NCBI RefSeq assembly: GCF_001956985.1
Contig: NZ_CP019082.1
Coordinates: 5,208,001 to 5,272,000 of the forward strand
DNA length: 64,000 bases
From: Paludisphaera borealis
GTDB taxonomy: Bacteria; Planctomycetota; Planctomycetia; Isosphaerales; Isosphaeraceae
Direction: 5' to 3'
A model generated the notes under the pieces. That model was not told the origin of the DNA, searched no databases, and saw only the letters and a list, made by a program, of their open reading frames with translations. This document shows positions 3,466 through 54,728 of the stretch, piece after piece (within the stretch, counting starts at the first letter, position 1; the number at the start of each line of letters is the position of its first letter). A program made the translations under genes and the position numbers.

Positions 3466-4512
3466 GTGGGATCGATCGTGGAGATCACGCTCAACGGCCG
3501 GAAGCGCGAGGTGCCGGACGCGCTCAACGTGGCCCGGCTTCTCGGGTTGCTGGAACTGAAACCCGAGCACGTCGCGGTCGAGCTCAATCGCGGCCTGGTG
3601 ACGCGCTCGAAGCACGCCGAGACCGACATCGCGCCGGGCGACACGCTGGAGATCGTCACGCTCGTCGGCGGTGGTTCGCCGTCCGCGCCTGCCGCGGCCG
3701 AGCCGGAACTGCTCTCGATCGGCGGCCATGCGGTGCGCAGCCGGCTGTTCGTGGGGACCGGCAAGTACACCACGCTCGAACTGATGCGCGATTGCCTGGA
3801 AGCCAGCGGGGCCGAGGTCGTCACCGTCGCGGTGCGCCGCGAGCGGCTGGTCGACCGCGACGGCCGCAACCTGCTCGACTTCCTCGATCCCGGCAAGTAC
3901 ACGATCCTCCCCAACACCGCCGGCTGCTTCAGCACCGACGAGGCGCTGCGGACGGCCCGCCTGGGCCGCGAGCTGCTCCAAGGGCTCGGCAACCCCGGGG
4001 CCGACTGGGTGAAGCTCGAAGTCCTGGCCGACACCCGGACGCTCTTGCCTGACCCGGTCGCGACCCTTGACGCGACGAGGGTGCTGGTCGCCGAGGGCTT
4101 TCAGGTCCTCTGTTACACGAGCGACGATCCGATCATGGCGCGGCGGCTCAAGGAAGCGGGCGCGGCGTCGGTGATGCCGGCCGGCAGCCCGATCGGCAGT
4201 GGGCAGGGGGTCCTCAACCCCAACAACATCCGGATCATCCTCGAAGATCTGAAGGGGGACGATCCGTCGTACCCCGTGATCGTCGACGCCGGGGTGGGGA
4301 CGGCCAGCGACGTGGCGATTGCGATGGAGCTGGGCTGCGACGGCGTTTTGCTCAACACGGGGATCGCCGGGGCGAACGACCCGCTGCGGATGGCCCACGC
4401 CATGCGGTTGGCCGTCGAGGCGGGCCGGCTGGCGGCGGGGGCCGGACGCATCCCCAAGAAGCTCTACGCCACCGCGTCGAGTCCGACTCAGGGCCTGGTC
4501 GGGCGCGCCTGA
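3466..4512 (+). CDS. thiG: ThiS-ThiG fusion: sulfur carrier joined to thiazole synthase
   Basis: 348 residues from GTG 3466 (GTG 3478 is an equally good start and gives VEITLNGRK). The first ~65 residues are a ubiquitin-fold ThiS domain ([22 protein letters not shown]). The rest is a ThiG TIM barrel: [14 protein letters not shown], a VKLEV segment carrying the Schiff-base Lys, [18 protein letters not shown] and [12 protein letters not shown]. ThiG condenses deoxyxylulose-5-phosphate, dehydroglycine and ThiS-thiocarboxylate into the thiazole of thiamine. Here the Gly-Gly that normally ends ThiS is internal, followed by a Ser/Pro/Ala linker. The gene stands alone, with a candidate promoter at 3292. 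Fused carrier/synthase proteins are known in some bacteria. Confidence 0.93.
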
Positions 4513-7656: not shown

Positions 7657-9024
7657 TCATCTGGCGACCTCGTAAAGCCGCAGACTGGCGTTGTCGTTAG
7701 GGGGGCGTGTTCGACGCCACGACCAATCCCTGAGCGGCGTCGAATTCCGCGCCAGGCCCTCGTCACGACCCGGCCGGCAGAGCAGGATCGCGGGCCCGGA
7801 TGGCCGGTCCTGTACTCGCACGACCTCGCCCGCCTTCCGATAATAGCCCAGCGGGTCGGCGACCCAGTCTTCGGCTGCCAGGACTGGGCGGTTTGGATAC
7901 TCAACGTCCAGGTACTCCGCCACGGCACGCCAAGGTGGCTTCGTATACATCGGGAAGGCCGAGGGCACCGCCGCTGTCAGCCATGCCAAGGCCCCGACGA
8001 GGGCGACCCTGCCAAGCCACCGGGGACAGTTCGCAGCCCAGAGGCCGACCAAGGCGACGAAGGCCAGCGCCGGTCCCATGAATTGACGCTCCGCCCAGAC
8101 GGACTTGGGACCGTAGGCTGACAGGGCGAAGACGACCAGGGGCACGCCCACGCCGATCCCGGTCAGGGCGAAGGCGGGCGGGGACAAGCCGCGTCGAATC
8201 GCGGTCGCATAGTACGCCACTCCTAGGGCCGCCAGAGGGAGCAAGAGCCACCGGGAACGGATGCCAGGCACGTCGCCGAAAATTCCGGCGTAGAACCAGA
8301 CCAATTCCTGCGGCGTCGGCTGCTTGATCCAGTCGATGTGCGGCAGCGGGTCGGTCCCGTGAAGTATATGACTGCCCATCGCAGTAATTAGCCACGGTAG
8401 GACGGTCGCGACGGCCAGAACGCCGCCGACGACCACGAGCACTTTTTCCCGGCGCGGCAGGACGAGCAGCAGGATGGCAATCTCAGCGGCGACGGTTAAG
8501 GCGGCGATGTACTGCGCCCAGGCTAACACGGCGCAAGTCACCGACCAAACGACGACCCGGCCGCGGACGGCTGGAGCGTCCAGCAGCCTCAGGAGGGCGA
8601 GCAGGTTGGCGGCCGAAAGGAGTGCGATGAGACTGTATGGACGGGCTTGCTGGCCGTAGTAGACGAAGAAAGGAGAGACGGCCACGAGTGCCAGAGCACC
8701 AAGGGCCGGCCCCGGCGGCATAAGTCGGCGTAGCAGGAGATGGGTGACGACGAGGAACGCCGCCGAGCAGAGTACGCTGAACGACCGCACGGAGATCTCT
8801 CCGACCTCGAACGCCCGCACCCAAGAGAACAGCAGGAGGTTATGCAGCGGCGGGTGGGGATGGTCCATCAGGGATTGCCGGATCATCCCCCCGAAGGGCT
8901 GCGCCGCAATCCGGGCGGAGAACAGTTCATCAATATCAAAATTGTAGTCGATCTGAACTGTTCGCAGGGCGAGGCCGATCATGCAGATCGCCAAGGCGGC
9001 GATGCGTTCGGTGCGGCCGGTCAT
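7657..9024 (-). CDS. Glycosyltransferase family 39-like membrane protein
   Basis: 455 residues from ATG 9024, which has GGAGGG about 9 bases upstream; GTG 9033 is in frame but lacks spacing. Many hydrophobic segments over the first ~380 residues. NFDIDELFSARIA near the N-terminus carries the acidic D-x-D/E pair of the GT-C fold used by PMT/ArnT-type enzymes, and HPHPPLHNLLLFSWV matches the following loop of that superfamily. It should transfer sugar from a polyprenyl-phosphate carrier to an acceptor on the outer side of the cytoplasmic membrane. The acceptor cannot be told. The gene is single, facing the PEP-CTERM gene and divergent from the cytochrome gene. Confidence 0.8.
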   Translation of the reverse strand: MTGRTERIAALAICMIGLALRTVQIDYNFDIDELFSARIAAQPFGGMIRQSLMDHPHPPLHNLLLFSWVRAFEVGEISVRSFSVLCSAAFLVVTHLLLRRLMPPGPALGALALVAVSPFFVYYGQQARPYSLIALLSAANLLALLRLLDAPAVRGRVVVWSVTCAVLAWAQYIAALTVAAEIAILLLVLPRREKVLVVVGGVLAVATVLPWLITAMGSHILHGTDPLPHIDWIKQPTPQELVWFYAGIFGDVPGIRSRWLLLPLAALGVAYYATAIRRGLSPPAFALTGIGVGVPLVVFALSAYGPKSVWAERQFMGPALAFVALVGLWAANCPRWLGRVALVGALAWLTAAVPSAFPMYTKPPWRAVAEYLDVEYPNRPVLAAEDWVADPLGYYRKAGEVVRVQDRPSGPAILLCRPGRDEGLARNSTPLRDWSWRRTRPPNDNASLRLYEVAR

Positions 9025-9380
9025 GGGGGACACCCTCCAGGGAGAGCGTAACGACTGCCTTCAAGGCCGCCGTGAGGGCGGTCGACTCTCATCTCGGCCT
9101 TGACGCGTGCTTGTCCACTTTCATTCGACTAGCAACGATTCTGTTACCGAATTGTCGCACTAAAATCACTTGAATGACAAGAAAATCACCCGAATTATAC
9201 GGCCGCAACCTCGGCGGAGGAGTTGGGGCGGGCCGGACCGGAGAACGCCGTTGCGGACGACGTGGGTGGCGCAGCAGCGGGATCGGGGCAGGGGCGAGCG
9301 TTGGGGGGCCATCCCATGGGGCTACGGAGATCCCCGCCATCGGGCCACTACCCCAGAGCGAATGAGTCGATACAATATTC
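9025..9380. other. Divergent intergenic region
   Basis: About 355 bases between the glycosyltransferase and the cytochrome gene. An AT-richer patch at about 9115-9190 is the likely promoter area for both. No ORF that I can support and no repeat seen. Confidence 0.4.
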
Positions 9381-41925: not shown

Positions 41926-42081
41926 ATGGTGGGCGTGATGAAGGTCAAGACGAAGCATCGCAAGAGTGGCAAGTGGAAGCGGCGGGCCGACAGTTCACCG
42001 ACGGCCAAGGGCCGGCGCGTGAAGCACCACGGCGTCCGCAACCCCCGCAAGCGCAAGCACCTCGGCGGCAAGGGCCTGTAA
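41926..42081 (+). CDS. Small highly basic protein, unassigned
   Basis: 51 residues from ATG 41926, or 47 from ATG 41938. Nearly half the residues are Lys, Arg or His (KVKTKHRKSGKWKRR, GRRVKHHGVRNPRKRKHL). The composition suggests binding to RNA or DNA, and the look is that of a small ribosomal or nucleoid protein, but it does not match bL34, bL35, bL36 or Thx well enough to name. It ends 37 bases before the convergent stop of the fused ABC gene. The ribosome site is weak. Confidence 0.45.
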   Translation: MVGVMKVKTKHRKSGKWKRRADSSPTAKGRRVKHHGVRNPRKRKHLGGKGL

Positions 42082-42117: not shown

Positions 42118-45100
42118 TCAGACCGTCTGGCGATGCACCAGCTCTTGAAACGGGCCGGGCTCGGCGACGAGCTGGTCGTATCGGCCCGCCTGCGCGATCT
42201 TGCCCGCCTTGACCACGTAGATCCGATCCGCCTGAACCACGGTGGTCAGGCGGTGCGCGATCACGACCCGGGTGGTCCCTTTGAGCTCGCGCGCGAGGCT
42301 CTCGGAGACGATCGCCTGGGTGACGTTTTCGAGCGAGCTGGTGGCCTCGTCCAACAGCAGAATACGCGGGCGGCGGACGACGGCGCGGGCGATCAAAAGC
42401 CGCTGCCGCTGACCGCCCGAGAGGCTCCCTCCCCCTTCGCTGACGAGGGTGTGCATCTGCATGGGGAGCTGGGCGATGTCGTCATCGATCCCCGCCAGCC
42501 GGGCGGCGCGCCAGGCGTCGTCCATGGTCAGGTCGGGGGCGAAGCCGACGATGTTGCTGTACAGGTCGCCCGGCATCAGGTCGGCGTTCTGGAGCACCAC
42601 GCCGATCTGGCGGCGGACCTCGCGGAGATCGAGCGTCGCCAACTCGCGGCCGTCGAACAGCACGGCGCCGACGCCGGGCGTCTCGAAACCCATCAGCAGC
42701 CGCATGATCGTCGACTTGCCCGAGCCCGAGGCGCCGACGATCGCCACGAACTCGCCGGGCCGCACCTGGATGTTCACGTCGTCCAGCACCTTGGCGCCGC
42801 CGCCGTCCTGACCCGGATAGCGGAACGACACCCCGTTCAGCGCCAGCGAACCCGATAGCTGGATGGGCTCGACCGCCGCGGCCGGAAACTCGGGCACGGC
42901 TTCGAGGATCGGCCGCACGCGTTGGTACAACGGCGGCAGTTCGAGCAAGCTCAGCAGCGTGAACCCCACCGCCAGCACCGAGCCCACCACGCCGGACAGC
43001 GCGATCGTGAACGCGAGGAAGTCGCCCGTCGTCTTCGGTCCGTCGACCAGATGGACCGCGCCCAAGTACACGACCATCGCGACCAGCATCGGAAAGATGG
43101 CGAAGAACCGGTGCAGCCGGTTGGCGTACCGCCGCGCCTTGACCGTCAGCCGAAGCTGCTCGACGTAGCGCTCGGCCCAACGGCCGAACGCCCGGTTCTC
43201 CGCGCCCGCCGTGCGGAGCTTCGACACGCCTCCCACGAGTTCCAGCAAGAAGCCGATGATCGAGCCCTCGACCCTGCGAATCGCCGTCTCCTGGCGAAGC
43301 TGGCCGGCGAGAATCGCCATCGTGACCACGAACATGAGGCCGACCAGCAGCGAGGCGATCAGCGCCAGCCGCCAGCTATACCAGAACAGCAAGGCGAGGT
43401 TGAACAGCGACGTCAGGCCGGTCACGACGGTCGTGACGGCGGCGCCCGAGGCCTTCTTGAAGATCGCGTCCAGGCCCATCGCCCGAAGGGCCAGGTCGCC
43501 CGAGGAGTAGTCGGCGAAGAACCGGGTCGGCAGCCGGAGCAGGCGGTCCCAGACGGCGGGGACGACCGAGGGCGTCAGCTTGCCCTCGATCCGGAGCATC
43601 GTGAGGCCCTGGAAAACCTGCAACATCGTGACCGAGTAGGCCAGGGTCAGCAAGAACGAGCAGAGGACCACCAGCCGCGACCAGCCGGCGGTCGGAAGGT
43701 CGGCGTCGGGGATCACGTCGTCGACCAGAACGCCGACGCCGATCGGGATTCCCAGCCCGAGGAGGCCCGCCGCGAAGGCCAGGGCGAAGACCAGCCGGAC
43801 CTCGCCGCGAACCCTGCTCCGGCAGAACCGCAGAAGGTCGATCATCCCCAGTCGATGATCGGGCAGCGTGGCGTAGAAGCTCCAGGCCTTGAGCGAGATC
43901 CGCCCGGCGACCGCCGCGTCGATCGGCCGTCGACTCCCCTTGGCCGGGTCGACCATCTCGTACGAGCGCCGGAAGAGGCGTCGCCAGCCGGAAGGGGGTA
44001 CAAGCGCGACGGGCCTCGGCTCGCCGTCGTCGAATTCCGCCAGGAGCGGCCCGCCTGGCGTCCGATCGTGCCAGCCGGGGGGGAGCGTTACCGGGCGGAT
44101 CAGGAAGCCCGAGGCGCGGGCGAGTTCGGCGAGGGGATGGCCCCCGTCGTCGGGCTCGTCGTCGGACCGCCGCCGGGGGGCGCGGACGTCGACGCCCAAC
44201 TCGCGGCCGACGGCTTGGCAGGCCGCGAGCAACGGGTCGGCACCGGGCTCGGCGCGAACGCCGGCCGCGTTGTTGGCGACCGCCGCGAGCTGGATCGAGA
44301 ACCGTCGCGTCAAGGCCGACTCGGCGGCGACGGCGCCGGTCAGCTCGGCCTGGGAACGCTCGGCCTCACGGTGCTCGATCCGCGCGAAGTCGTCGAGCAC
44401 CGCGCGATGGAAATCCATCAAGCCCGCCCACGGGTCTCCCGTCCGCACCATCGTCAGCGTGTCGCAGGCCGTCACGCGGCAGTCGGCCAGGGCCGTCAGC
44501 CAGAGGTGTTCGGACAGCGGGAACCGCGACTCGCGCTCGTCGGCCGGCAGCGGCTGGGCGTCGAGGAACAGCGAGCCGCCGTCGAGCCGGCGGACCCAGG
44601 CGATCCCCTTGGCGACGCCGTAACGAGCGCCTTGCGCGACCTCGATATCTTCGCCGAGCGTCAGGTCGATTTGAGTCCGCCGCGTGATCGACTCGCCCAG
44701 GGCGCGGCTGACGCGGAAGATCCAGTCGTCGATCAGAAGCGCGACCTGCTCGGCGAGCGACTCTTCAAAGCTGAGCCGCATCAGGTCGCCGCGCGCGAAC
44801 TTGCGGAGCAACGCCGAGCCGACCCCGACGGCGAGCAGCCCGCCCCCGGATCGCCCTCGCACGCCGCTGACGGCGAAGATCGACCCCCCTTCCTCGACGC
44901 GGCAGAGGTGCCGCCTCCGGCCGGGGCCGCCTGCTCCATCGGGCTGCGTGAAGAAGACGTCGACCTGCCCGCGCTCCACCCACCAGACGGATTCGGGATC
45001 ATCGAGCGGCAGCGGGTTGTTGGCGGCCGTCTCCTCGGGGCGGCTGAACGACTGAAGCTCCTCGATCAAAAACTTCGGTCCGGACGAATCGTCGTTCGAG

Positions 45101-47412
45101 GGGTCGTCCGAGCCGACCCATGAGGCTGAGGCCAAGACGGAGACGGCCGCCCCCTGGCCGTTGCGGGCGAAGGCCGACGTCCGATCCGAGGCGAGCAAGG
45201 TCGTCAGCCGCGAGCCTCGGGGCGCCGGCGTCGACTGCTGCGAGAGCAGCCGGGCGTATTCGCCGTCGGGCTCGCGGATCAGGTCCTCGTGCGTCCCGCG
45301 CTGGACGACCCGGCCGGCGGCCAGGACGATGATCTCGTCGCAGTCGCGGATCGTGCTGAGCCGGTGGGCGATGATCAGGCACGAGCAGCCTCGACGGCGG
45401 AGGTGGTCGTCGACGATCGCCTCGGTCTTGGGGTCGAGCGCGCTCGACGCCTCGTCGAGCACCAGCAGGCTGGGGTCGCGGACGACCGCCCTGGCGATTT
45501 CGAGCCGCTGCCGCTGGCCCCCCGAGAAGTTCCGCGCCTGCTCAGCAACCGCCGCGTCGTAGCCCCCCCGGCGCTGGAGGAGGTCGCCGTGGATCGCTGC
45601 GCTCAGGCCGGCGTGCGACAGCCTATCGACGCTGATTCGATCGTCCCAGAGCGTCAGGTTGTCGCGGACCGTGCCCTGGAACATGCTGATGCGTTCGTCG
45701 ACCATCGCCACCGAGTTGACGAACACCTCGCGGGGGATCTCGGCGATCGGCCGGCCGTCGTGAAGCACTTCGCCGCTCCAGGGCTGATGCAGCCCCACGA
45801 TCAGCCGGGCGAGCGTCGACTTGCCGGCCCCCGAGCCTCCCACCAGGGCGACCCGTCGGCCCGGCCGGATCTCCATCGAGAAGTCCTTGATCAGCGGCTC
45901 GTCGACGGTCCGGTTGTAGCCGAACGTCACCGACCGCAGCTCCAGGCGGCCGTCGAGCCGCGGCGGCCAGGCCGTCGGCGAAGCGGGCGCCGGACGCGGC
46001 GTCAGCAGCGGGTCGAGCCGGTGGGAACGGACGTCGTCGATCCGATCGAGGTCGGCTTGCAGCTCCTGCACCTCGGAACCCAGCCGCGCGAAGTCGCGGA
46101 ACGGCTGGTTGAAATGGGCCAGGAGCGCCTGAAACGCCACGAGCGCGCCGATCGTGAGGCTGCCGGCCGCGACCTGCCGGCCGCCCAGGCCGAGGATCAC
46201 GATCGACGTCATCACCGACAGGAACGGCGGCAGGATCATCAGCACCGTATCGTACGCGCCCAGGTCTTGCTCGGAGCTGACGACGCGGGCCTGGTGGCCG
46301 GTCCACCGCGCCAGGAGGTCCGACTCGGCCCCCGTCGCCTTGACGGTCTCGATGATCTGGATCGCCCACATGAGGCTCGCCGCCAGCCGGCCGCGCACCT
46401 GCTCGATCGTCCGGTTGCGGTCGATCCGCCAGCGGCTCAACCACCGGAGGACCAGCAGGTTCACGCTGCTGATCCCGACGCCCACGACCGTCAGCAGCGG
46501 GTCGTACGGGAACATGACGGCCGCGAAGAAGATCACCGTCAAGAAGCTCACCGCCGTGGTGGCCAGCTCTCCCGAGATCAATTGCGCCACGCGGACGGTG
46601 CTGACCGCCCGGCTGACCAGATCGCCCGCGTAGCGGTGCTGATAGAAGTTCATCGGCAGCCGCAACAGGTGTTGCAGGAACTTGACCGACTCCGAGAGCG
46701 CCATCCGGATTTCGAGCCGGGTCAGATACACCTGCTGGAGCGTCACGGCGGCCAGCCGGACCACGGCCGTGAGGCCCATGCCGATCAGCAGCGGCTTGAG
46801 CCAGTCGCGACGGCCCTCGACGAGGATCTCGTCGATGAACACGCGCTGAAACGAGGCGGCCACCAGCGCGGGCGCGACCAGAACCAGGCCTGCGAGGATC
46901 ACGAACCAGAGCGCGGTCTTGGAAGTCGAGAGCCGTCGGGAGAGTCCCTTCAGAACGCCGGGCCGGTTCCCCTTGCGCTTGAAAGTCTTCCCCGGCTCGA
47001 ACGAAAACGCGATGCCGCTGTACTGCTTCTCGAACTCGGCGAAGCTCACGACCCGACGGCCGCAGGCGGGATCGTTGAGATACACCTTGCCGCGCGCGAA
47101 ACCCTCGACCACGAGGAAGTGGTTCCACTGCCAGAAGACCATCAGCGGCGGCTTCTTCGTGGCGAGCCCCGCCGCCGGCTTGCGGAAGGCCGACGTCTCC
47201 AGCCCATACCGTCTGGCCGCTTCGCGGATGTAGTAGGCGTTGCTGCCGTCGCGCGATACCCCGCAGTCTTCGCGCAGGACGTCCAGCGGCACATACCGGC
47301 CGTGGTATTCGAGGATGATCCCCAGCGCCGCGGCCCCGCACTCGGTAGCCTCCATCTGGAGGACCGTCGGCGTGCGGACCGGCCGGTGTCGTCGCTCTCG
47401 ATCGCTCGGCAT
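42118..47412 (-). CDS. Fused double ABC peptide exporter (C39 peptidase-ABC plus second ABC)
   Basis: 1764 residues in one frame. Residues 1-160: C39 peptidase that cuts double-glycine leaders, with Cys 25 (EATECGAAAL), His 98 (WNHFLVV) and Asp 114 (LNDPA). 165-450: first membrane domain. 485-725: first ATPase, Walker A GGSGAGKS (525-532), signature SGGQR (630), Walker B LLVLDE. 780-1180: soluble region containing a cyclic-nucleotide-binding-like fold (VWWVERGQVDVFF). 1195-1500: second membrane domain. 1520-1764: second ATPase, GASGSGKS (1560), SGGQR (1665), LLLDEA. The two halves correspond to the NHLM bacteriocin-system ABC1 and ABC2 proteins, normally separate genes. With the HlyD adaptor it should cleave and export the nearby GG peptide. 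Confidence 0.92.
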   Translation of the reverse strand: MPSDRERRHRPVRTPTVLQMEATECGAAALGIILEYHGRYVPLDVLREDCGVSRDGSNAYYIREAARRYGLETSAFRKPAAGLATKKPPLMVFWQWNHFLVVEGFARGKVYLNDPACGRRVVSFAEFEKQYSGIAFSFEPGKTFKRKGNRPGVLKGLSRRLSTSKTALWFVILAGLVLVAPALVAASFQRVFIDEILVEGRRDWLKPLLIGMGLTAVVRLAAVTLQQVYLTRLEIRMALSESVKFLQHLLRLPMNFYQHRYAGDLVSRAVSTVRVAQLISGELATTAVSFLTVIFFAAVMFPYDPLLTVVGVGISSVNLLVLRWLSRWRIDRNRTIEQVRGRLAASLMWAIQIIETVKATGAESDLLARWTGHQARVVSSEQDLGAYDTVLMILPPFLSVMTSIVILGLGGRQVAAGSLTIGALVAFQALLAHFNQPFRDFARLGSEVQELQADLDRIDDVRSHRLDPLLTPRPAPASPTAWPPRLDGRLELRSVTFGYNRTVDEPLIKDFSMEIRPGRRVALVGGSGAGKSTLARLIVGLHQPWSGEVLHDGRPIAEIPREVFVNSVAMVDERISMFQGTVRDNLTLWDDRISVDRLSHAGLSAAIHGDLLQRRGGYDAAVAEQARNFSGGQRQRLEIARAVVRDPSLLVLDEASSALDPKTEAIVDDHLRRRGCSCLIIAHRLSTIRDCDEIIVLAAGRVVQRGTHEDLIREPDGEYARLLSQQSTPAPRGSRLTTLLASDRTSAFARNGQGAAVSVLASASWVGSDDPSNDDSSGPKFLIEELQSFSRPEETAANNPLPLDDPESVWWVERGQVDVFFTQPDGAGGPGRRRHLCRVEEGGSIFAVSGVRGRSGGGLLAVGVGSALLRKFARGDLMRLSFEESLAEQVALLIDDWIFRVSRALGESITRRTQIDLTLGEDIEVAQGARYGVAKGIAWVRRLDGGSLFLDAQPLPADERESRFPLSEHLWLTALADCRVTACDTLTMVRTGDPWAGLMDFHRAVLDDFARIEHREAERSQAELTGAVAAESALTRRFSIQLAAVANNAAGVRAEPGADPLLAACQAVGRELGVDVRAPRRRSDDEPDDGGHPLAELARASGFLIRPVTLPPGWHDRTPGGPLLAEFDDGEPRPVALVPPSGWRRLFRRSYEMVDPAKGSRRPIDAAVAGRISLKAWSFYATLPDHRLGMIDLLRFCRSRVRGEVRLVFALAFAAGLLGLGIPIGVGVLVDDVIPDADLPTAGWSRLVVLCSFLLTLAYSVTMLQVFQGLTMLRIEGKLTPSVVPAVWDRLLRLPTRFFADYSSGDLALRAMGLDAIFKKASGAAVTTVVTGLTSLFNLALLFWYSWRLALIASLLVGLMFVVTMAILAGQLRQETAIRRVEGSIIGFLLELVGGVSKLRTAGAENRAFGRWAERYVEQLRLTVKARRYANRLHRFFAIFPMLVAMVVYLGAVHLVDGPKTTGDFLAFTIALSGVVGSVLAVGFTLLSLLELPPLYQRVRPILEAVPEFPAAAVEPIQLSGSLALNGVSFRYPGQDGGGAKVLDDVNIQVRPGEFVAIVGASGSGKSTIMRLLMGFETPGVGAVLFDGRELATLDLREVRRQIGVVLQNADLMPGDLYSNIVGFAPDLTMDDAWRAARLAGIDDDIAQLPMQMHTLVSEGGGSLSGGQRQRLLIARAVVRRPRILLLDEATSSLENVTQAIVSESLARELKGTTRVVIAHRLTTVVQADRIYVVKAGKIAQAGRYDQLVAEPGPFQELVHRQTV

Positions 47413-47620: not shown

Positions 47621-47683
47621 CTTGCTGCTGATCGGATCGGGCTCGGGGAAACCGTGAGGCAAGATGTGGACCAGGAACTCGCC

Positions 47684-48598
47684 ATGAACGCCGACCTGGA
47701 AACAAGCGAAACGGAAGTCGAGCGGATGCGGCCGAGGCTCCTGGCCCTGGCGTATCGCATGCTCGGCAGCGCGGCCGACGCCGAGGACGCCGTGCAAGAC
47801 GCCTATCTGCGCTATCAGCAGGTTTCGGACGTCGCCGCGCCCGACGCCTGGCTCGTGAAGGCGACCACGCGGCTTTGCATCGACCGTCTCCGGCAGGCCA
47901 AACGCCGCGAGACGTACTTCGGCCCCTGGCTCCCCGAGCCGGTCGCCGAGACCTGGGCGGGGGCCGGCGACGACAGCCTGGAACTGGCGGAATCGCTGTC
48001 GATGGCGTTTCTCGTCCTGCTCGAAACCCTGTCGCCGTCGGAGCGGGCCGCCTACTTGCTGCGCGAGGTCTTCGGCTATGAATTCGAGGAGATCGCCGCG
48101 CTGCTCGACAAGACGCCGGTGAACGTCCGGCAGATCGTCGCCCGCGCCCGGAAGCATGTCGACAACAAGGATCGGCGGTTCCACTCGACGGCGGAGCAGG
48201 CCGAGGACCTCGCGGCGCGGTTCTTCGACGCCTGCCGGTCGGGCGACGTCCACGCCATCGAATCACTGCTGACGCCCGACGCGGTCCTGTACTCCGACGG
48301 CGGCGGCAAGGTCCACGCGGCACCTCGGCCCCTTACCGACCCCCGACAGATCGCCAAGCTGCTCGCTGTGACTTTCCGCAAGTTTTATCTCCACTGCGAC
48401 GAGTCGGCGACCATCGTAAACGGCCGACCGGGCGTGTTCTATTCGGCGTCAGGAAAAGCCGTCTCGCTCGTCACGTTCGCCGAGAATCGCGGGAGCGTCG
48501 GAACGCTTTACGTCGTCCTGAACCCCGACAAACTCGAACGGTGGTCTTTCTCAGGACCGGAACCCATTAACGATACGGCAAGTGAACCTCAATCCTAG
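47684..48598 (+). CDS. ECF41-family sigma factor with C-terminal regulatory domain
   Basis: 304 residues from ATG 47684 (CAGGA upstream; GTG 47654 is a longer option). Sigma2 LLALAYRMLGSAADAEDAVQDAYLRY, then the linker with WLPEPV. Sigma4 LETLSPSERAAYLLREVFGYEFEEIAALLDKTPVNVRQIVARARKHV. The C-terminal SnoaL-like extension contains the ECF41 hallmark YSDGGGK and the closing NPDKL. In this family the extension acts as a built-in anti-sigma element. The following gene encodes a carboxymuconolactone decarboxylase, the usual ECF41 partner and target. Transcribed against the flanking export genes. Confidence 0.93.
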   Translation: MNADLETSETEVERMRPRLLALAYRMLGSAADAEDAVQDAYLRYQQVSDVAAPDAWLVKATTRLCIDRLRQAKRRETYFGPWLPEPVAETWAGAGDDSLELAESLSMAFLVLLETLSPSERAAYLLREVFGYEFEEIAALLDKTPVNVRQIVARARKHVDNKDRRFHSTAEQAEDLAARFFDACRSGDVHAIESLLTPDAVLYSDGGGKVHAAPRPLTDPRQIAKLLAVTFRKFYLHCDESATIVNGRPGVFYSASGKAVSLVTFAENRGSVGTLYVVLNPDKLERWSFSGPEPINDTASEPQS

Positions 48599-48608
48599 GA
48601 GACGAATC

Positions 48609-49073
48609 ATGAACCAGCGCATGGAATACGCGAGCGCGTCGCCCGAACCGATGAAGGCCATGTTCGCCCTCGGCTCGTACCTCGAACGCTGCGGGCTGGA
48701 GTCGAGCCTTCTCGAACTGGTCAAGATCCGGGCGTCGCAGATCAACGGCTGCGGCTTCTGCCTCGACATGCACACGAAGGACGCCCGGGCCGCGGGCGAG
48801 ACCGAGCAGCGGATCTACCTGCTGAACGTCTGGCGCGAGGCGCCGCAATTCACCGACCGCGAGCGCGCGGCGCTCGCCTGGACCGAGGCCGTGACGCGGA
48901 TCGCCGACGGCGGCCCGTCCGACGAGGTCTACGAGCAGGCGCGCGGGCAGTTCAGCGAGAAGGAGCTGACCGACCTGACCTGGGCCGCAGTCGTCATCAA
49001 CAGCTACAACCGCCTCGCCGTCAGCTTCCGGATCACGCCCGGAACCTACAAGGTGGGCCAGTTCAAAGTGTGA
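48609..49073 (+). CDS. Carboxymuconolactone decarboxylase/AhpD-like protein
   Basis: 154 residues from ATG 48609 with AGGAGA upstream. SSLLELVKIRASQINGCGFCLDMHTKDARA gives the E...CxxC...H site (Cys 48, Cys 51, His 55) of AhpD-type alkylhydroperoxidases, probably a thiol-dependent peroxide or redox enzyme. The gene follows the ECF41 factor by 10 bases and is the expected regulon member (ECF41 with its CMD partner). Its substrate is not known for most members. Confidence 0.92.
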   Translation: MNQRMEYASASPEPMKAMFALGSYLERCGLESSLLELVKIRASQINGCGFCLDMHTKDARAAGETEQRIYLLNVWREAPQFTDRERAALAWTEAVTRIADGGPSDEVYEQARGQFSEKELTDLTWAAVVINSYNRLAVSFRITPGTYKVGQFKV

Positions 49074-49118: not shown

Positions 49119-50444
49119 TCAGTCGGCGCCCAGGAGTTTTCTCGTCCAGGGGACGACGAGGTGGATCAGTCGCTGGCGCTCGACGACGACGGCGGCCTCG
49201 CACATCGTGGCGGTCTTGAGCGTCTGGGCCGAGCCGGATCGGGACGACCAGCGGAAGCGGTTGTTGCGAGGGCCGTCGTCGGCGAGCCGGCCGGCCGGGC
49301 GTTCCTCCAGATGGATGTGGACCCGCAGCAAGACCCCTGGCGCGTACTTTTTCAAGAAGCTCTCGACCAGGTCGGGGTGCGGCAGGGCCGTCTCCATGGC
49401 GAGCTTCGTGGCGGGCATCTCCGACACGGCGGCGACGCGGCCGTGGATGAACCCGTGCTCTTCGCGCTTGACGGTGGCGGGGACGACCTCGACGTGGTCG
49501 CCGACGTTGATCTTCTTCCCCTCGCCGGCGGCGACGAACACGATGCATTCAGAGGGGCCGCGGACCTCGTCGGCGGCGGAATCGGTCCGCTCCGTCGACA
49601 GCAAGACCACCGGCGAACCCTCGTGGACCATCTCGTTGACGGCCGTCAGGATCTGGGTGACTTTCCCCTCCACCGGCGCGATGATCCGCGACGTGCGATC
49701 GAGCTTCGCGCGCTCGAGGTCGAGCTTGGTTTCGAGCCGATTGATCTCCAGCCGTCGCTGGAGCGCGGTCTTGCGACGCGCGTTCTCGGCGGTGAGCCAG
49801 GTGAGGCTCAGCTCGGCGATCTTCGTGCCGCCGACATCGACGTTGTTGCGGATCTCGTAGAGCTTTTCGAGTGATTCGAGCAGGTCGAGGTTGCTCAACT
49901 GGTTCCGCGAACGGAGCCGCTCGGACCCGTCCTTGATCATCTCGGCCACCTTGAGGCCGATCCGGTTGTTGTCGATCGTCGTCTGGAGCGTCTGGCGAAG
50001 CTGATGGACGGCCAGCTCCTGCGTTTTGCGCTCGTCTTGCTCGAACTCGGTGAGCCGGACGTCCTCGTTCCTCAGCTCGTCGAGGCGCGTCTGGGTCTCA
50101 TGGATCTCGTCCTTCAGGTTTTCCTGCGACAGCAGGCCGATTTTGAGGCCCTTGGCGACTCGATCGCCGAGCTTGACGTCGAGTGAAGCCAGCCGGCCGT
50201 CGCCGTGCGAGCGGACCTGGGCGAGCGTGTCCTTGTCGATCAGCAGGATGCCGTCGCCGTGCACCTTCTTGGGCACTTCATACAGGAACGCGAACGTCAC
50301 CGCCGCGCCGCAGATCAGGAACAGGGTCGTCAGCGAAGCCCAGGCGTGGGGCGACGTGACCTCGACCAGAGCGTCGAGATCCTCGAGCGCGGGGCCGTGA
50401 CTCTCGATCGCCGGCTTGGGGGCTGCGGTTTCGGTCGCGGTCAT
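49119..50444 (-). CDS. HlyD-type membrane fusion protein of NHLM-like export system
   Basis: 441 residues. One N-terminal membrane helix (ASLTTLFLICGAAVTFAFLY), then a biotinyl-lipoyl-like half (LIDKDTLAQVRSHGDGRLASLDVKLGDRV) and a long coiled-coil hairpin (about 115-260). The second half-lipoyl segment is RIIAPVEGKVTQILTAVNEMVHEGSPVVLLST and a beta barrel follows. It links the ABC exporter in the inner membrane to the outside, forming the export channel with the fused ABC protein. The GG-peptide gene lies 64 bases upstream on the same strand; the ABC gene lies 1.7 kb downstream, separated by the ECF41 operon on the other strand. Confidence 0.88.
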   Translation of the reverse strand: MTATETAAPKPAIESHGPALEDLDALVEVTSPHAWASLTTLFLICGAAVTFAFLYEVPKKVHGDGILLIDKDTLAQVRSHGDGRLASLDVKLGDRVAKGLKIGLLSQENLKDEIHETQTRLDELRNEDVRLTEFEQDERKTQELAVHQLRQTLQTTIDNNRIGLKVAEMIKDGSERLRSRNQLSNLDLLESLEKLYEIRNNVDVGGTKIAELSLTWLTAENARRKTALQRRLEINRLETKLDLERAKLDRTSRIIAPVEGKVTQILTAVNEMVHEGSPVVLLSTERTDSAADEVRGPSECIVFVAAGEGKKINVGDHVEVVPATVKREEHGFIHGRVAAVSEMPATKLAMETALPHPDLVESFLKKYAPGVLLRVHIHLEERPAGRLADDGPRNNRFRWSSRSGSAQTLKTATMCEAAVVVERQRLIHLVVPWTRKLLGAD

Positions 50445-50508: not shown

Positions 50509-50700
50509 TCAGGTGTTGGGATTCGGTGTATTGCCGTTGCCCGGGGGTGTGGGCGGAGGAGTCGGCGTCGGCGGGATCACGCCGATCTTGGCGCCGCCGG
50601 AAATCCGCCGCAGCTCGTCGGGCGTCAGATTGACGGTGTCCGAGGACTTCTTGGGCGAGTTGTCCGAATCCTTCGGCGGATTGTGGCTCGATGCAGCCAT
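50509..50700 (-). CDS. Double-glycine leader peptide with Pro/Thr/Asn-rich core
   Basis: 63 residues from ATG 50700, with AGGAGA seven bases upstream, the strongest ribosome site of the cluster. Residues 1-36 look like a bacteriocin-type leader: polar start, then NLTPDELRRISGG with Gly 35-Gly 36, the C39 peptidase cleavage motif. The predicted core, residues 37-63, begins AKIGVIPPTPTPPP and ends NTPNPNT: ten Pro, five Thr, four Asn, no Cys and no Ser, so lanthionine or disulfide chemistry is excluded. Directly upstream of the HlyD gene. Probably the exported cargo; whether it is a bacteriocin, signal or structural peptide is unknown. Confidence 0.7.
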   Translation of the reverse strand: MAASSHNPPKDSDNSPKKSSDTVNLTPDELRRISGGAKIGVIPPTPTPPPTPPGNGNTPNPNT

Positions 50701-50845
50701 GGGGGAATCTCCTACTTCCAGAGACGGGATCGTCAGCCATTTTCCTTGCCGGAAAGATACGCGGATTCCAAGTTATTCTTACACATCGCGACGGCCGTGC
50801 GACGAGAAAAGAATCGCTTGGGAATGCGCCGTGTTCATTGGTTCA

Positions 50846-53800
50846 TTATGGCGCAGCGAACGGCCGTTCGGGGAAGTCGAGGTCGTCGCGAAGGGCGCGG
50901 AGGGGCTCGCGATCAAGGATCGCGTTGAGATCGTGGTCAGCGCGGATGCGCGGCCCGTCCCGGAACCCGAGGGCCCACGCGAGTCGAAAGTCGTCGACCG
51001 CGGCTTGGATGAACAGTTCCCGCACGGCGTCGCCGCGTGGGGGGAGGGGGGCGCGGCCGTAGCCGACGAGACAGGCGCGGGCCGCCGCTTGCGAGGCCAG
51101 GGTCGCCAGCTCGTCGCGGTTCGCGCGGTTCCAGAGGGTCAGGCGTTCGGCGGCGGCGCGGGCCGAGGCGTCGGGCCGACCTTGGAGTCGGCGGACGCGG
51201 GCGAGATCCTGGAGGGCCTCGGACAGCCCCCGCCGCGTGGCCGGCTCGTCGGCGGGACCCGCCTGCGACCGCTCGGTTCGCATCAGGGTCGCGGCCTGTT
51301 CGAGGACCGCCTCGGCCTTGGCCAACTCGTTTTGATCAGCCAGGCAGCCGGCCTGCTGGACCAGTTGTCCGCTCAACTGGCATTGCAGACTCGACTTCCG
51401 GGTCGAAGTCGGGACGGCGGATTCGATCATCCGGCCGGCTTCCTTGAGGTCGTCGAGAGCGCGCGCCGGCTCGCCGAGTTGACGTCGAAGAGCGGCGAGG
51501 CTCGACAAGGAGTCGACCACGTTGTTCCAGTACTCGTCGTTGTCCGGATTGACGCTCAGAAGCTCCCGGAGCGCCTGGAGCGATTCTTCGAAGTAGGGCA
51601 GGCTCTTGGTCGGGTCTCCCAGATCGACGTATTGCTCTCCCAGATTGCCGAGCGAGATGGCGAGAAAGTACTTGTATTCGTGGGCGTCGACCGATTCGGC
51701 GACGGCTCGACGGTGCTCGACGACGGCTTCCTGGAAGTGGACGAACGCCTTGCGGTTGTCGCGCTGCTCGTCGTGGATGTAGCCGATGTTGTTCAGGGTT
51801 CGGCCGAGTTGGTTGTGGAACAGAGCGCGTCGGGGATCGTTCTTGACGAGGGGTTCGAGGATGGTTCGAGACCGGTTGAGCGAGTCGAGCGCGTCCGCGT
51901 CTCGGCCGGAGAAATGCTGGGCGAAGGCGATCTCGCGATGGCTCTTGCCGAGTTCGACCTGGAACCGAGGGACCGACGGGTGCCCTTCCACCAGCGCCGA
52001 GCGGTAGATGATCGACTGGTCGTACGACGCCAGGGCCTTCGTGAACGCACCATCGTGCGTCTGGATGTTGCCGATGTTGTAATAACTGATCCCGAGCAAT
52101 TCGAGATCGCGGATCGGCTTGGGGCCCGGCGGCGCGCGGTCGACCAGGCTCAGGCAGATCGCCTGCGACTCCTGGAACGCCTCCAGCGCCTTGGGATAGT
52201 CGAGTCGCTTGAACGAGACGAAGCCCTGATTGTTGACGACTTCCGCAAGGGCTCGCTGATACAGGATCTCGTTCGGAGACTGATCGATGAGTCGACGAAG
52301 GACTCGATGCGCCTTGGCCAACGACGCGAGGGCGCCGTCGGCTTGCTCCTGCGTCGCCTGGATCGCGCTCATTTCCGAATAGCAGGCGGCCAGCTCCATG
52401 AGGAGGTCGGAATTCGACGGGGTCAGGCCGGTCTGAACTTCGAGCACTTCCGCCGCTTCTTCGAGCGACCGCATCGCCTCGCGCGGCCGGTCGATCTTGG
52501 CCAGGACGTTGCCGATCTGGATCAGGGTCTGGGCGCGCTTCGCCTGGAGGTCCAGGTCGTGCGGGGCTTTTTCGAGCAGCCCGTCCCAGACGGCGCGGGC
52601 CTCGCGCAGGGGTTCGAGGGCCGTCTGGGGGGTGTCGATCTCGCCGCGGATGATGCCGACGCGATGATAGGCCGAGCCGAGCTGGCGACGGAGCCGGGGA
52701 TCGCTTTTCCGCTCCTCGACGAACTTCTGGTAATAGCGGAGCGCCGTCTGGAGCAGCTCCTGACGGAGCCGTCGCATGTCGAGCGAGTCTTCCTCCTTGA
52801 GTAGGGTGCTCTCGCTGACCTTGGTGAGGTATTCGTCGACGGCCGCTTGCGCCAGACTGAAGTTGTCTTCGGCTTCCTTGTGGGCCTCGACGGCGTTTCG
52901 CCGGGCGGCGTCGACGAAGGCCACGGCGATCAAAGCGATCAGGCTGAGGCCGACCAGGGCGGCGGCGGCCGAGTAGGCCCAGGTGCGGTGCCGCCGGATC
53001 CACCGCGAAAGCCGTTCCGAACGCCCCTCGGGATAGGCCGAGACCGGCTCGTCCCCCAACCAGTTCTCTAGGTCGCGGGCCAGCGCCCCGGCCGTCTCGT
53101 ACCGGTCCTCGGGCTCGTAGGCCATCGCCTTGCGGCAGACGGCGACGAGCGGCGGCGGGGCCGACGGCGCCAGAGCGAAGGGAGAGGTCAGGTTGCCCTT
53201 GAGGACGGCGGCGATGATCAGCGGCGCCCGGTCGCCGCGGAACGGGACGACCCCCGTCAGAAGCTCGTAGAGCGTGGCCCCCAGGCTGTAGACGTCGCTG
53301 CGCGGCCCGATCTGGTCGAGGTCGCCCCGAGCCTGTTCGGGGCTCATGTACGACGGCGTGCCGATGCTGGTGCCGGGCCTCGTGTCGCTCGACGACGTCG
53401 GGCCCGAGTCGTCCGGCTCGGGCTCGTCGTCGCTGAGCCCTGACGCGGCGTCGGGCTTGTCGATGATCTTGGCGAGCCCCCAGTCGACGACCAGCGTCTC
53501 GCCGTAGGGGCCGAGCATGATGTTGCCCGGCTTCAGGTCGCGATGGATCACCCCCCGGCTGTGCGCGTAGGCGAGGGTGTCGCAGGTGTCCAGAAAGCGG
53601 CGGAGGATCGCCTGGAACTCGATCCCCCAGGTGGGGGGCGACTCGCCCGCGCCGGCCTCGGCCTCGGCTTTCTTGCGGGCCTCGTGGAACCGCTGGATCG
53701 TGACCGCCAGGCTGTCGCCGCGAATCAGCCGCATCGCGTAGAACGGGCGTCCCTCGGCGTCCTTGCCCAGGCTGTAGACCGGCACGATCCCGGGATGCTC

Positions 53801-54382
53801 AAGCTTGCCGGTGATCTCGGCTTCCAGGAGGAACCGCGCGCGGAGGTCGCCGCGATCGGCGTATCGGCCCTGAAGCTTCTTGAGCGCGACCTCGCGTTGA
53901 AGTTCGCGGTCGCGAGCCACCCAGACCTGCCCGATCCCCCCCTTGGCGTGCGATCGAAGGATCTGATAGCGCGTGTCGGAGGCCGAATCCGGAAGTTCCA
54001 TGGGGCCCGGAGCGCCCTCGGCCTCGATCGAGCCCTGAGCCGGCGTCCGGTCGAGATACCGCGCCAGGAAGTCGCCGAGCTGGGGGCGGCTCTCCACGTG
54101 TTCGACCTCGGTCCGTCCGTCCGGCAAATGCGTCGCGACGCTCCAGGCTTCCAGACTGCGCCCAAGGTCGTGGTGACAGCTCTCCCAATGGGCCGCGACG
54201 ATGCGCCGCAGAACCTGGAGCTGGCGCTCGTCCAGGCCGCCTTGATCCTTGAGCAGCTCGGCCAGGGAACGGGTAGAATCCTGAGCCCATTGCGTCACCA
54301 CGCTGGCGACCGTCTCCTCCGGGATCGTGTCGGTCAACGTCGCCAGGACGGCCACCAGCAGTTCTTGATCGACGTCGGTCAC
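50846..54382 (-). CDS. Ser/Thr protein kinase with TPR-type repeats
   Basis: 1178 residues from GTG 54382. ATG 54445 and TTG 54508 are in frame upstream, but VTDVDQELLVAVLATLTD is the usual start of this kinase type. A ~130-residue N-terminal helical region is followed by the kinase domain: AKGGIGQVWVA loop (~147-154), VALKK Lys 168, HRDLKPGN (280-287), DWG in place of DFG (300-302) and GTPSYMSPEQARG. One membrane helix follows (YSAAAALVGLSLIALIAVAFV), then ~600 residues of TPR-like helical pairs (ALEPLREARAVWDGLLEKAP, GNVLAKIDRPREAMRSLEEA). It may sense the cell surface and phosphorylate cytoplasmic targets. It ends 146 bases before the GG-peptide gene on the same strand. Confidence 0.9.
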   Translation of the reverse strand: MTDVDQELLVAVLATLTDTIPEETVASVVTQWAQDSTRSLAELLKDQGGLDERQLQVLRRIVAAHWESCHHDLGRSLEAWSVATHLPDGRTEVEHVESRPQLGDFLARYLDRTPAQGSIEAEGAPGPMELPDSASDTRYQILRSHAKGGIGQVWVARDRELQREVALKKLQGRYADRGDLRARFLLEAEITGKLEHPGIVPVYSLGKDAEGRPFYAMRLIRGDSLAVTIQRFHEARKKAEAEAGAGESPPTWGIEFQAILRRFLDTCDTLAYAHSRGVIHRDLKPGNIMLGPYGETLVVDWGLAKIIDKPDAASGLSDDEPEPDDSGPTSSSDTRPGTSIGTPSYMSPEQARGDLDQIGPRSDVYSLGATLYELLTGVVPFRGDRAPLIIAAVLKGNLTSPFALAPSAPPPLVAVCRKAMAYEPEDRYETAGALARDLENWLGDEPVSAYPEGRSERLSRWIRRHRTWAYSAAAALVGLSLIALIAVAFVDAARRNAVEAHKEAEDNFSLAQAAVDEYLTKVSESTLLKEEDSLDMRRLRQELLQTALRYYQKFVEERKSDPRLRRQLGSAYHRVGIIRGEIDTPQTALEPLREARAVWDGLLEKAPHDLDLQAKRAQTLIQIGNVLAKIDRPREAMRSLEEAAEVLEVQTGLTPSNSDLLMELAACYSEMSAIQATQEQADGALASLAKAHRVLRRLIDQSPNEILYQRALAEVVNNQGFVSFKRLDYPKALEAFQESQAICLSLVDRAPPGPKPIRDLELLGISYYNIGNIQTHDGAFTKALASYDQSIIYRSALVEGHPSVPRFQVELGKSHREIAFAQHFSGRDADALDSLNRSRTILEPLVKNDPRRALFHNQLGRTLNNIGYIHDEQRDNRKAFVHFQEAVVEHRRAVAESVDAHEYKYFLAISLGNLGEQYVDLGDPTKSLPYFEESLQALRELLSVNPDNDEYWNNVVDSLSSLAALRRQLGEPARALDDLKEAGRMIESAVPTSTRKSSLQCQLSGQLVQQAGCLADQNELAKAEAVLEQAATLMRTERSQAGPADEPATRRGLSEALQDLARVRRLQGRPDASARAAAERLTLWNRANRDELATLASQAAARACLVGYGRAPLPPRGDAVRELFIQAAVDDFRLAWALGFRDGPRIRADHDLNAILDREPLRALRDDLDFPERPFAAP

Positions 54383-54728
54383 AAAGACCCCCCAACCTTG
54401 CCCGTGTCGTTTCGACGCGGGTCGATCGCTTGCACGATCATGCATCCTCGCTTTGTCGGAAGCTCGCTTTCCATCATTGAGTTTGGTCGATCCCGGCGGC
54501 GTGTTCAATTGGAGATGCCGTCACCCCGCGCCCGGAATTCTCGAACCGTCGCACGGCCCAAGCTCGTGGAAGAAACCCGGCGGCGCGATTCTCGTCGCGC
54601 GGATCGATTTTTCGCAATTCTTTTTGTATAAAAGGCGAGAATGCGGCCGGGAGTCATGGACGAGGGGGAGCCGCGACCCGTAGAATGGAGTTCTGCCGTA
54701 CCTGTGAACGCCGTGTGGGGAGGCGGAG
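54383..54728. other. Divergent intergenic region (kinase / sufR)
   Basis: About 345 bases. TATAAA at 54627-54632 inside an AT-rich stretch is a plausible -10 for sufR, flanked by an ATTCTCG/CGAGAAT inverted pair about 50 bases apart that might be an operator. Both are weak calls. Confidence 0.3.

What the first reader, a model, noticed from the sequence alone, without database searches (positions are those of the whole stretch)
50509..50700. Proline-rich double-glycine peptide as cargo of an export system
The 63-residue gene has a bacteriocin-type leader ending in ISGG (35-36) right upstream of an HlyD adaptor, in the same locus as a C39-peptidase ABC exporter. The predicted 27-residue core has ten Pro, five Thr, four Asn and no Cys or Ser, so it does not fit lantibiotics, sactipeptides or disulfide bacteriocins, and no modifying enzyme gene is nearby. 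It may be an unmodified or glycosylated Pro-rich peptide.
Basis: partly seen in the sequence, partly recalled or inferred. Interest (0 to 1): 0.8.

Follow-up and report, generated by a model that had tools for sequence, protein, structure and literature searches.

The report
Proline-rich export peptide of planctomycetes
A tiny gene in a soil planctomycete makes a precursor whose first half is a conserved export tag and whose second half is a short, floppy, proline-rich peptide; the same gene sits beside the same export genes in five related genomes, so it is very probably a real, apparently unmodified, secreted peptide of unknown role.

Summary
The 63-aa frame (50509-50700, minus) lies 64 bases upstream of an NHLM-type HlyD gene, in the same locus as a C39-peptidase ABC exporter. 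The leader fits the C39 recognition motif (L-12, E/D-8, L-7, I-4, GG). In two close pairs the last 19 leader codons differ only synonymously while the core changes freely. Core composition is constrained: no Cys, Asp, Glu or Arg, one Lys each, 28% Pro, 20% Thr. No tailoring enzyme was recognised among 49 called window genes. The exporter fuses the two NHLM ABC subunits. Best reading: a tailoring-free NHLM locus exporting an unmodified, disordered Pro/Thr-rich peptide. Its role and any glycosylation are untested. The window is Paludisphaera borealis PX4, for which two antiSMASH-based papers report no bacteriocin cluster. New variant of a known kind.

The parts
50509..50700 (-). GG-leader peptide precursor gene, 63 aa
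   Evidence: ATG-to-stop frame; homologues upstream of the same HlyD in 5 other genomes
50593..50700 (-). leader, residues 1-36, ending LTPDELRRISGG
   Evidence: L-12, E-8, L-7, I-4, G-2, G-1 fit the C39 recognition motif described in PMC6363468; last 19 codons with only synonymous changes in two close pairs
50512..50592 (-). predicted core (mature) peptide, residues 37-63
   Evidence: composition; modelled as coil
50709..50713 (-). AGGAG ribosome-binding-like sequence
   Evidence: read from the sequence; function is inference
49119..50444 (-). NHLM-type HlyD periplasmic adaptor, 441 aa
   Evidence: TIGR03794, 224 bits against cut-off 156.2
42118..47412 (-). fused NHLM ABC1 + ABC2 exporter, 1764 aa
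   Evidence: TIGR03796 at residues 13-723 (1274.7 bits, cut-off 853.3) and TIGR03797 at 1059-1762 (1114.1 bits, cut-off 709.4)
46987..47373 (-). C39 peptidase domain of the exporter (residues 14-142) with Cys25, His98, Asp114
   Evidence: PF03412 E 2.6e-30; aligned to 6mpz, E 2.8e-35; LahT triad Cys27/His101/Asp117
50846..54508 (-). Ser/Thr kinase with TPR repeats, upstream neighbour; membership in the system doubtful
   Evidence: neighbour in 4 of 6 loci but also present in 4 congeners that lack the exporter

Best explanation
The gene encodes the precursor of a small secreted peptide carried by a tailoring-enzyme-free NHLM (NHLP/Nif11-associated) export system. Proposed steps: (1) the leader, a short helix around residues 27-33, docks Ile-4, Leu-7 and Leu-12 into the groove of the C39 domain of the fused exporter; (2) the C39 Cys/His/Asp triad cuts after Gly36; (3) the fused ABC1-ABC2 protein, acting as a one-chain heterodimer, moves the 27-residue core out of the cytoplasm through the HlyD adaptor and an outer-membrane channel encoded elsewhere; (4) outside, the unmodified, disordered, nearly uncharged Pro/Thr-rich peptide acts as a lineage-specific extracellular peptide, most likely a signal or a competition factor. 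Steps 1-2 rest on motif, residue and homology evidence, step 3 on family membership and synteny. Step 4 is inference from composition, variability and the lack of recognised enzymes. No step has been shown by experiment.
For: Co-occurrence: close HlyD relatives occur in 6 of 45 Isosphaeraceae genomes, own included (a seventh, G017, is distant). The peptide (E <= 1.8e-22) or its leader alone (E <= 2.5e-13) occurs in exactly those 6, once each, upstream of HlyD; the next leader-only hit is E 0.02. These profiles were built from the six, but the HlyD search used the window protein alone and the peptides were then found by reading the flanks. Selection: last 19 leader codons 11 same/8 synonymous/0 non-synonymous for G006-G007 and 15/4/0 for G025-G021; first 14 core codons 4/3/7 and 8/2/4. 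Motif: L-12, E/D-8, L-7, I-4, G-2, G-1 in 6 of 6, as in the LahT-leader complex (PMC6363468 passages). The C39 domain best matches 6mpz with the triad kept. Cores: 126 residues, no D/E/R/C, 35 P, 25 T; chance of no D/E/R at the window's background 1.8e-12 (treating residues and relatives as independent, which they are not). Model: helix 27-33, coil elsewhere (mean pLDDT 68.7). No tailoring enzyme recognised in 49 called window genes or in 21 neighbour genes of four other loci.
Against: No expression, cleavage or secretion data. Only six loci. In G021 (a MAG whose contig name gives coverage 1.3) no in-frame start was found for the peptide and the exporter frame is interrupted by one stop. In G025 the peptide's contig ends 44 residues into the exporter; a full-length frame is on another contig. 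No outer-membrane channel and no recognisable immunity or receptor gene is a shared neighbour; the one TolC-type (OEP) gene seen, in G019, is about 9 kb away beside copper-type genes. No sigma-70-like promoter was found, though planctomycete promoters may differ. The exporter is patchy: 5 of 6 genomes of the window's genus lack it. In three of six loci the gap between peptide and HlyD is 377-386 bases, so co-transcription is less sure there.
Confidence: 0.75

Rival explanations
1. The exported core is glycosylated, or otherwise modified, on Thr/Ser by an unlinked enzyme, making it a small O-glycopeptide.
For: Thr is enriched (25 of 126 core residues); each of the six cores has Thr; a PMT_2-type mannosyltransferase-like gene lies in the window (7657-9033).
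Against: That gene is about 41 kb away and its presence near the other loci was not tested; no glycosyltransferase is a neighbour of the peptide in the window; Thr/Pro/Gly/Asn enrichment also fits a plain disordered peptide.
Confidence: 0.12
2. The peptide is an antagonistic, bacteriocin-like or proline-rich antimicrobial peptide.
For: GG leader, C39 exporter, conserved leader with a variable core, patchy distribution.
Against: One Lys and no Arg, Asp or Glu per core, mean hydropathy -0.2 to -1.0, so neither membrane-active nor like cationic proline-rich peptides (their features recalled); no immunity gene recognised.
Confidence: 0.3
3. The peptide is a cell-cell or developmental signal, as proposed for the cargo of the peptidase exporter HetC in Nostoc.
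For: Single copy of this leader per genome, short, no immunity gene recognised; HetC shows that peptidase exporters can serve differentiation in Gram-negatives (PMC10986499 abstract). A Ser/Thr kinase is adjacent in 4 of 6 loci.
Against: No receptor is a shared neighbour; the kinase occurs in 4 congeners without the exporter.
Confidence: 0.3
4. The core is a by-product; the conserved part (the leader) is what matters, for example as a regulator of the exporter, and the true cargo is encoded elsewhere.
For: Only the leader is conserved in sequence, and conservation reaches K-20/K-19, beyond the 13 residues that suffice for LahT.
Against: Core composition is constrained; no second gene with this leader in any of the six genomes. 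A cargo with a different leader was not searched for.
Confidence: 0.1
5. Chance open frame, not a gene.
For: Weak codon signal (+2.7); low-complexity C-terminus in a high-GC genome.
Against: Synonymous-only leader divergence in two pairs and strict co-occurrence in six genomes.
Confidence: 0.02

Closest known systems
NHLM/NHLP export system (TIGR03794 + TIGR03796 + TIGR03797; Haft et al. 2010, PMC2887384, passages seen)
   Same: All three transporter components match above the curated cut-offs; precursor with GG leader beside them; conserved leader with hypervariable core.
   Different: The precursor matches no NCBIfam or Pfam model at the limits used, so no NHLP or Nif11 leader; no cyclodehydratase or LanM recognised; no Cys in the core; ABC1 and ABC2 are one 1764-aa chain instead of two genes.
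Cyanobacterial bacteriocin precursors beside C39 exporters (Wang et al. 2011, PMC3140520, passages seen)
   Same: GG leader, C39 exporter + HlyD; that paper's table puts 150 of 290 precursors outside the named families.
   Different: Their NHLP/N11P cores are described as rich in Gly, Cys, Ser and Thr; these cores lack Cys and are Pro-rich.
LahT / PCAT1 / ComA peptidase-containing ABC transporters (6mpz, 4ry2, 3k8u; the name PCAT1 for 4ry2 is recalled)
   Same: C39 domain homologous; same catalytic residues and leader motif.
   Different: Gram-negative setting with HlyD adaptor and fused second ABC subunit.
HetC of Nostoc (PMC10986499, abstract seen)
   Same: Peptidase-containing exporter in a Gram-negative, with a cargo proposed to be a signalling peptide.
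   Different: HetC has an N-terminal nucleotide-binding domain and an unknown substrate; here a candidate substrate gene is adjacent.
Class II microcins (microcin V type; recalled, reviews seen in listings only)
   Same: Unmodified GG-leader peptide, peptidase ABC exporter and HlyD-type adaptor.
   Different: Core only 18-27 aa and Pro/Thr-rich; no immunity gene recognised; exporter scores as NHLM subfamily.

Membership tests
C39 (double-glycine) exporter substrate | Leader with hydrophobic -12, -7, -4, acidic -8 and GG/GA/GS at -2/-1 | tested here: met
   6 of 6 homologues against the motif in PMC6363468
C39 (double-glycine) exporter substrate | Linked C39 exporter with intact catalytic triad | tested here: met
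   window: Cys25, His98, Asp114 aligned with the LahT triad; the other five were not checked residue by residue
C39 (double-glycine) exporter substrate | Cleavage after GG and secretion | not testable with these tools
   needs an assay
NHLM export system | TIGR03794, TIGR03796 and TIGR03797 above cut-off | tested here: met
NHLM export system | ABC1 and ABC2 as separate subunits (the usual form) | tested here: not met
   one 1764-aa frame in the window; single frames of 1793-1948 aa in 6 of the 7 Isosphaeraceae genomes with this exporter type, G021 split by one stop
NHLP / Nif11 precursor | Match to the TIGR03793/TIGR03798 leader models | tested here: not met
   no NCBIfam hit for the window peptide at E 0.01, nor for two homologues at E 1
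RiPP (TOMM, lanthipeptide, sactipeptide) | Tailoring enzyme at the locus and modifiable Cys/Ser/Thr | tested here: not met
   no such enzyme among 49 of 49 called window genes (Pfam or NCBIfam) nor 21 neighbours in L014-L017; L018 neighbours not scanned; no Cys in 6 of 6 cores, though Thr is present
Class II bacteriocin/microcin | Antibacterial activity and an immunity gene | tested here: inconclusive
   no immunity gene recognised by domain search; activity not testable here
Glycocin / glycopeptide | Linked glycosyltransferase and modified residues | tested here: not met
   no adjacent glycosyltransferase in the window; modification itself not testable
Proline-rich antimicrobial peptide | Cationic, Arg/Pro-rich (recalled) | tested here: not met
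   no Arg and one Lys in each of six cores

The most novel reading that the evidence does not exclude
The six Isosphaeraceae peptides are one case of a wider, unnamed class: tailoring-free NHLM exporters in Gram-negative bacteria that secrete short, Cys-free, intrinsically disordered, often Pro-rich peptides for a non-bacteriocin purpose such as signalling or envelope coating. Possible further cases, by pattern match only, are an Azospirillum MAG with a Pro/Thr-repeat GG peptide divergent from its HlyD gene (L041), a gammaproteobacterial MAG (L040) and three genomes of another planctomycete genus (L103, L105, L113). In Isosphaeraceae the exporter has become a single-chain heterodimer.
Probability: 0.3. 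Interest if true: 0.7.

Novelty: new variant of a known kind. Interest (0 to 1): 0.5.

Why it matters
NHLM exporters are usually read as markers of modified peptide natural products. A precursor family with no recognised tailoring enzyme, no Cys and a disordered Pro/Thr-rich core suggests that the same machinery also secretes plain short peptides, which mining tools overlook: two antiSMASH-based papers list no bacteriocin cluster for this organism (PMC5352709, PMC7716859). It gives planctomycetes a concrete, testable secreted-peptide gene with a putative protease, exporter and cleavage site.

Tried and rejected
Kinase as part of the system: neighbour in 4 of 6 loci, but found at E <= 1e-150 in 4 of the 5 other genomes of the genus, which have no close HlyD, beside suf genes; in G025 its relative is on another contig. 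Downgraded to a doubtful neighbour.

Second copies in the own genome: searches (four weak hits; best extra hit E 0.03; one search shows it inside a region where a 549-aa and a 490-aa frame also run; extra hit E 0.75) give none.

Substrates beside more distant NHLM systems: pattern scans of 18 loci and 30 loci with 1.5 kb flanks (including the window's own copy). Many gave nothing or frames that look like chance; some gave NHLP/Nif11-type peptides (L081, L082, L084, L085, L087, L118). L040, L041, L103, L105 and L113 were Cys-free hydrophilic candidates. L036, L037, L038, L039, L042 and L019 gave no convincing candidate. These are pattern matches, not proven genes. L105 has only a weak, sub-cut-off hit to a CTB bacteriocin model (E 0.13).

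Promoter and terminator scan: nothing useful. Class and phylum searches score only 4 candidates a genome and sample the group, so absences there are weak. The first genome-contig scan found no relative; the second, with an alignment, found 10 loci.

Literature: nine searches; none listed a paper on this peptide or on a Pro-rich NHLM cargo, as far as titles and abstract openings show. Subscription papers are not held.

Full report
WHERE IT IS. The genome holding the window has 7,651,896 bases in 3 contigs, the chromosome being 7,497,544. This equals the published 7.498 Mb chromosome plus plasmids of 111,833 and 42,519 bases of Paludisphaera borealis PX4 (PMC5352709, passages).

THE GENE. 50509-50700, minus strand, encodes 63 residues: a 36-residue leader ending LTPDELRRISGG and a 27-residue core. 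It lies 64 bases before the HlyD gene, which matches TIGR03794. The exporter gene 42118-47412 matches TIGR03796 over residues 13-723 and TIGR03797 over 1059-1762, both above cut-off, so it is a fusion of the two ABC subunits. Neither Pfam (E up to 1) nor NCBIfam (E up to 0.01) has a match for the peptide.

IT IS CONSERVED. With the window HlyD as query, 7 of 45 Isosphaeraceae genomes match; 6, counting the window's own, are close (own 100%, five at 50-57% identity) and one (G017) is distant. Reading upstream of the five foreign close copies gave a GG-leader peptide in each: four by pattern and the fifth, G021, by eye. A profile of the six finds them at E 1.8e-22 or better and nothing better than E 0.008 elsewhere in the 45 genomes. 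The leader alone gives the same six at E 2.5e-13 or better, next best 0.02. Those profiles contain the six sequences, so only the absence elsewhere and the single copy number are new information from these two calls. No in-frame start was seen for the G021 peptide and its exporter frame has one stop; its contig name gives coverage 1.3. In G025 the contig ends 44 residues into the exporter gene; a 1793-aa C39 exporter frame is on another contig.

SELECTION ON THE LEADER. For G006-G007 the last 19 leader codons show 11 identical, 8 synonymous and 0 non-synonymous; for G025-G021 15, 4 and 0. The first 14 core codons show 4/3/7 and 8/2/4. The other 13 pairs, more diverged, show 4-8 non-synonymous leader codons of 19 and 9-12 core codons of 14. 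Positions -20, -19, -15, -14, -12, -7, -4, -3, -2 and -1 are invariant in 6 of 6. [quoted passage not shown] The AlphaFold2 model of the window peptide has one helix, residues 27-33 (-10 to -4), and coil elsewhere; mean pLDDT is only 68.7.

THE CORES. Lengths are 18-27 (G021 counted as 21, really 22). All six lack Cys, Asp, Glu and Arg and have exactly one Lys; Pro is 15-37%. Together: 126 residues, 35 Pro, 25 Thr, 14 Gly, 12 Ala, 10 Asn. With the window's gene background, no D/E/R has probability 1.8e-12 if residues were independent; relatives are not independent, so this is only indicative. Lack of Cys alone is uninformative (0.35).

THE PEPTIDASE. The C39 domain is most similar to 6mpz (E 2.8e-35), then to the solved bacteriocin transporters such as 4ry2 and to ComA. 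I take 6mpz to be LahT because its Gln21, Cys27, His101 and Asp117 fall where the paper puts them; here they are Gln19, Cys25, His98 and Asp114. The own genome has one C39 match at E 1e-5, so this exporter is its only C39 candidate.

NEIGHBOURHOOD. The locus sits between a Ser/Thr kinase gene next to sufC, sufB and sufD (named) and a 51-aa basic reading frame, in the window and in both Aquisphaera genomes. In four congeners (G001, G003, G004, G005) the kinase and suf genes are there but no HlyD, peptide or full exporter was found in the 13-16 kb fetched; one search finds no HlyD in any of the 5 other genomes of the genus. I read this as an old locus lost in congeners (inference). All 49 genes that my own codon-based caller found in the window (small genes can be missed) were compared with Pfam or NCBIfam: no RiPP-tailoring enzyme and no immunity gene was recognised, and the only glycosyltransferase-like gene is a PMT_2 gene 41 kb off. 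In the other loci 21 neighbours were scanned (2 in L014, 1 in L015, 8 in L016, 10 in L017, none in L018): again no tailoring enzyme; one TolC-type gene in L016, about 9 kb away beside copper-type genes.

OUTSIDE THE FAMILY. NHLM HlyD relatives are rare in the class (8 of 397 genomes sampled) and somewhat commoner in the phylum (29 of 392 at E 1e-20, 27 over the cut-off). Of 30 loci, three from genomes of one genus (L103, L105, L113) carry short Cys-free GG peptides 0.8-0.9 kb upstream of HlyD, same strand. An Azospirillum MAG has, divergent from HlyD and running off the contig, a GG leader followed by Pro/Thr repeats; a gammaproteobacterial MAG has a 70-aa GG peptide upstream of HlyD. Ten regions of nine plasmids were fetched of 17 records matched. 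One is unannotated; of the 9 others, 3 show annotated tailoring enzymes (L081, L084, L085) and 6 do not, within about 9 kb and with incomplete gene tables. All 9 have separate ABC1 and ABC2 genes.

WHAT IT MOST LIKELY DOES. A cleaved, exported, unmodified, disordered peptide: probability 0.75. For its role, signal and antagonism are about equally likely, an envelope or matrix role less so; nothing here decides. My nine paper searches listed nothing on this peptide.

Noticed in passing
window 47654-49073: A SigJ-like sigma factor gene and an AhpD-domain gene lie on the opposite strand between HlyD and the exporter; in both Aquisphaera loci the same gap holds a different 462-513 aa gene with an LEERVVM-like N-terminus and no Pfam match.
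   Followed up: partly
window 41926-42081: A 51-aa very basic reading frame, conserved in 3 of the 5 other loci at 74-81% identity (next to the exporter in both Aquisphaera, next to the kinase in L016); no Pfam or NCBIfam match.
   Followed up: partly
window 3466-4509: ThiS and ThiG domains in one 348-aa protein.
   Followed up: no
window 50846-54508: TPR-bearing Ser/Thr kinase gene kept beside the suf genes in five of the six genomes of the genus.
   Followed up: partly
L083 16833-19177: Three GG-leader peptides sharing MIRELIDTELEVVAGG near an NHLM exporter on a Bradyrhizobium plasmid, with no annotated tailoring enzyme.
   Followed up: no
L041 3-323: Azospirillum MAG: GG leader followed by Pro/Thr/Gly repeats (37% Pro), divergent from an NHLM HlyD gene, cut by the contig end.
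   Followed up: partly
L018 (G021) exporter: Exporter frame split by one stop and peptide without an in-frame start in a low-coverage MAG; may be sequencing error or decay.
   Followed up: no
window 1-771: IS110-type transposase at the left edge of the window.
   Followed up: no
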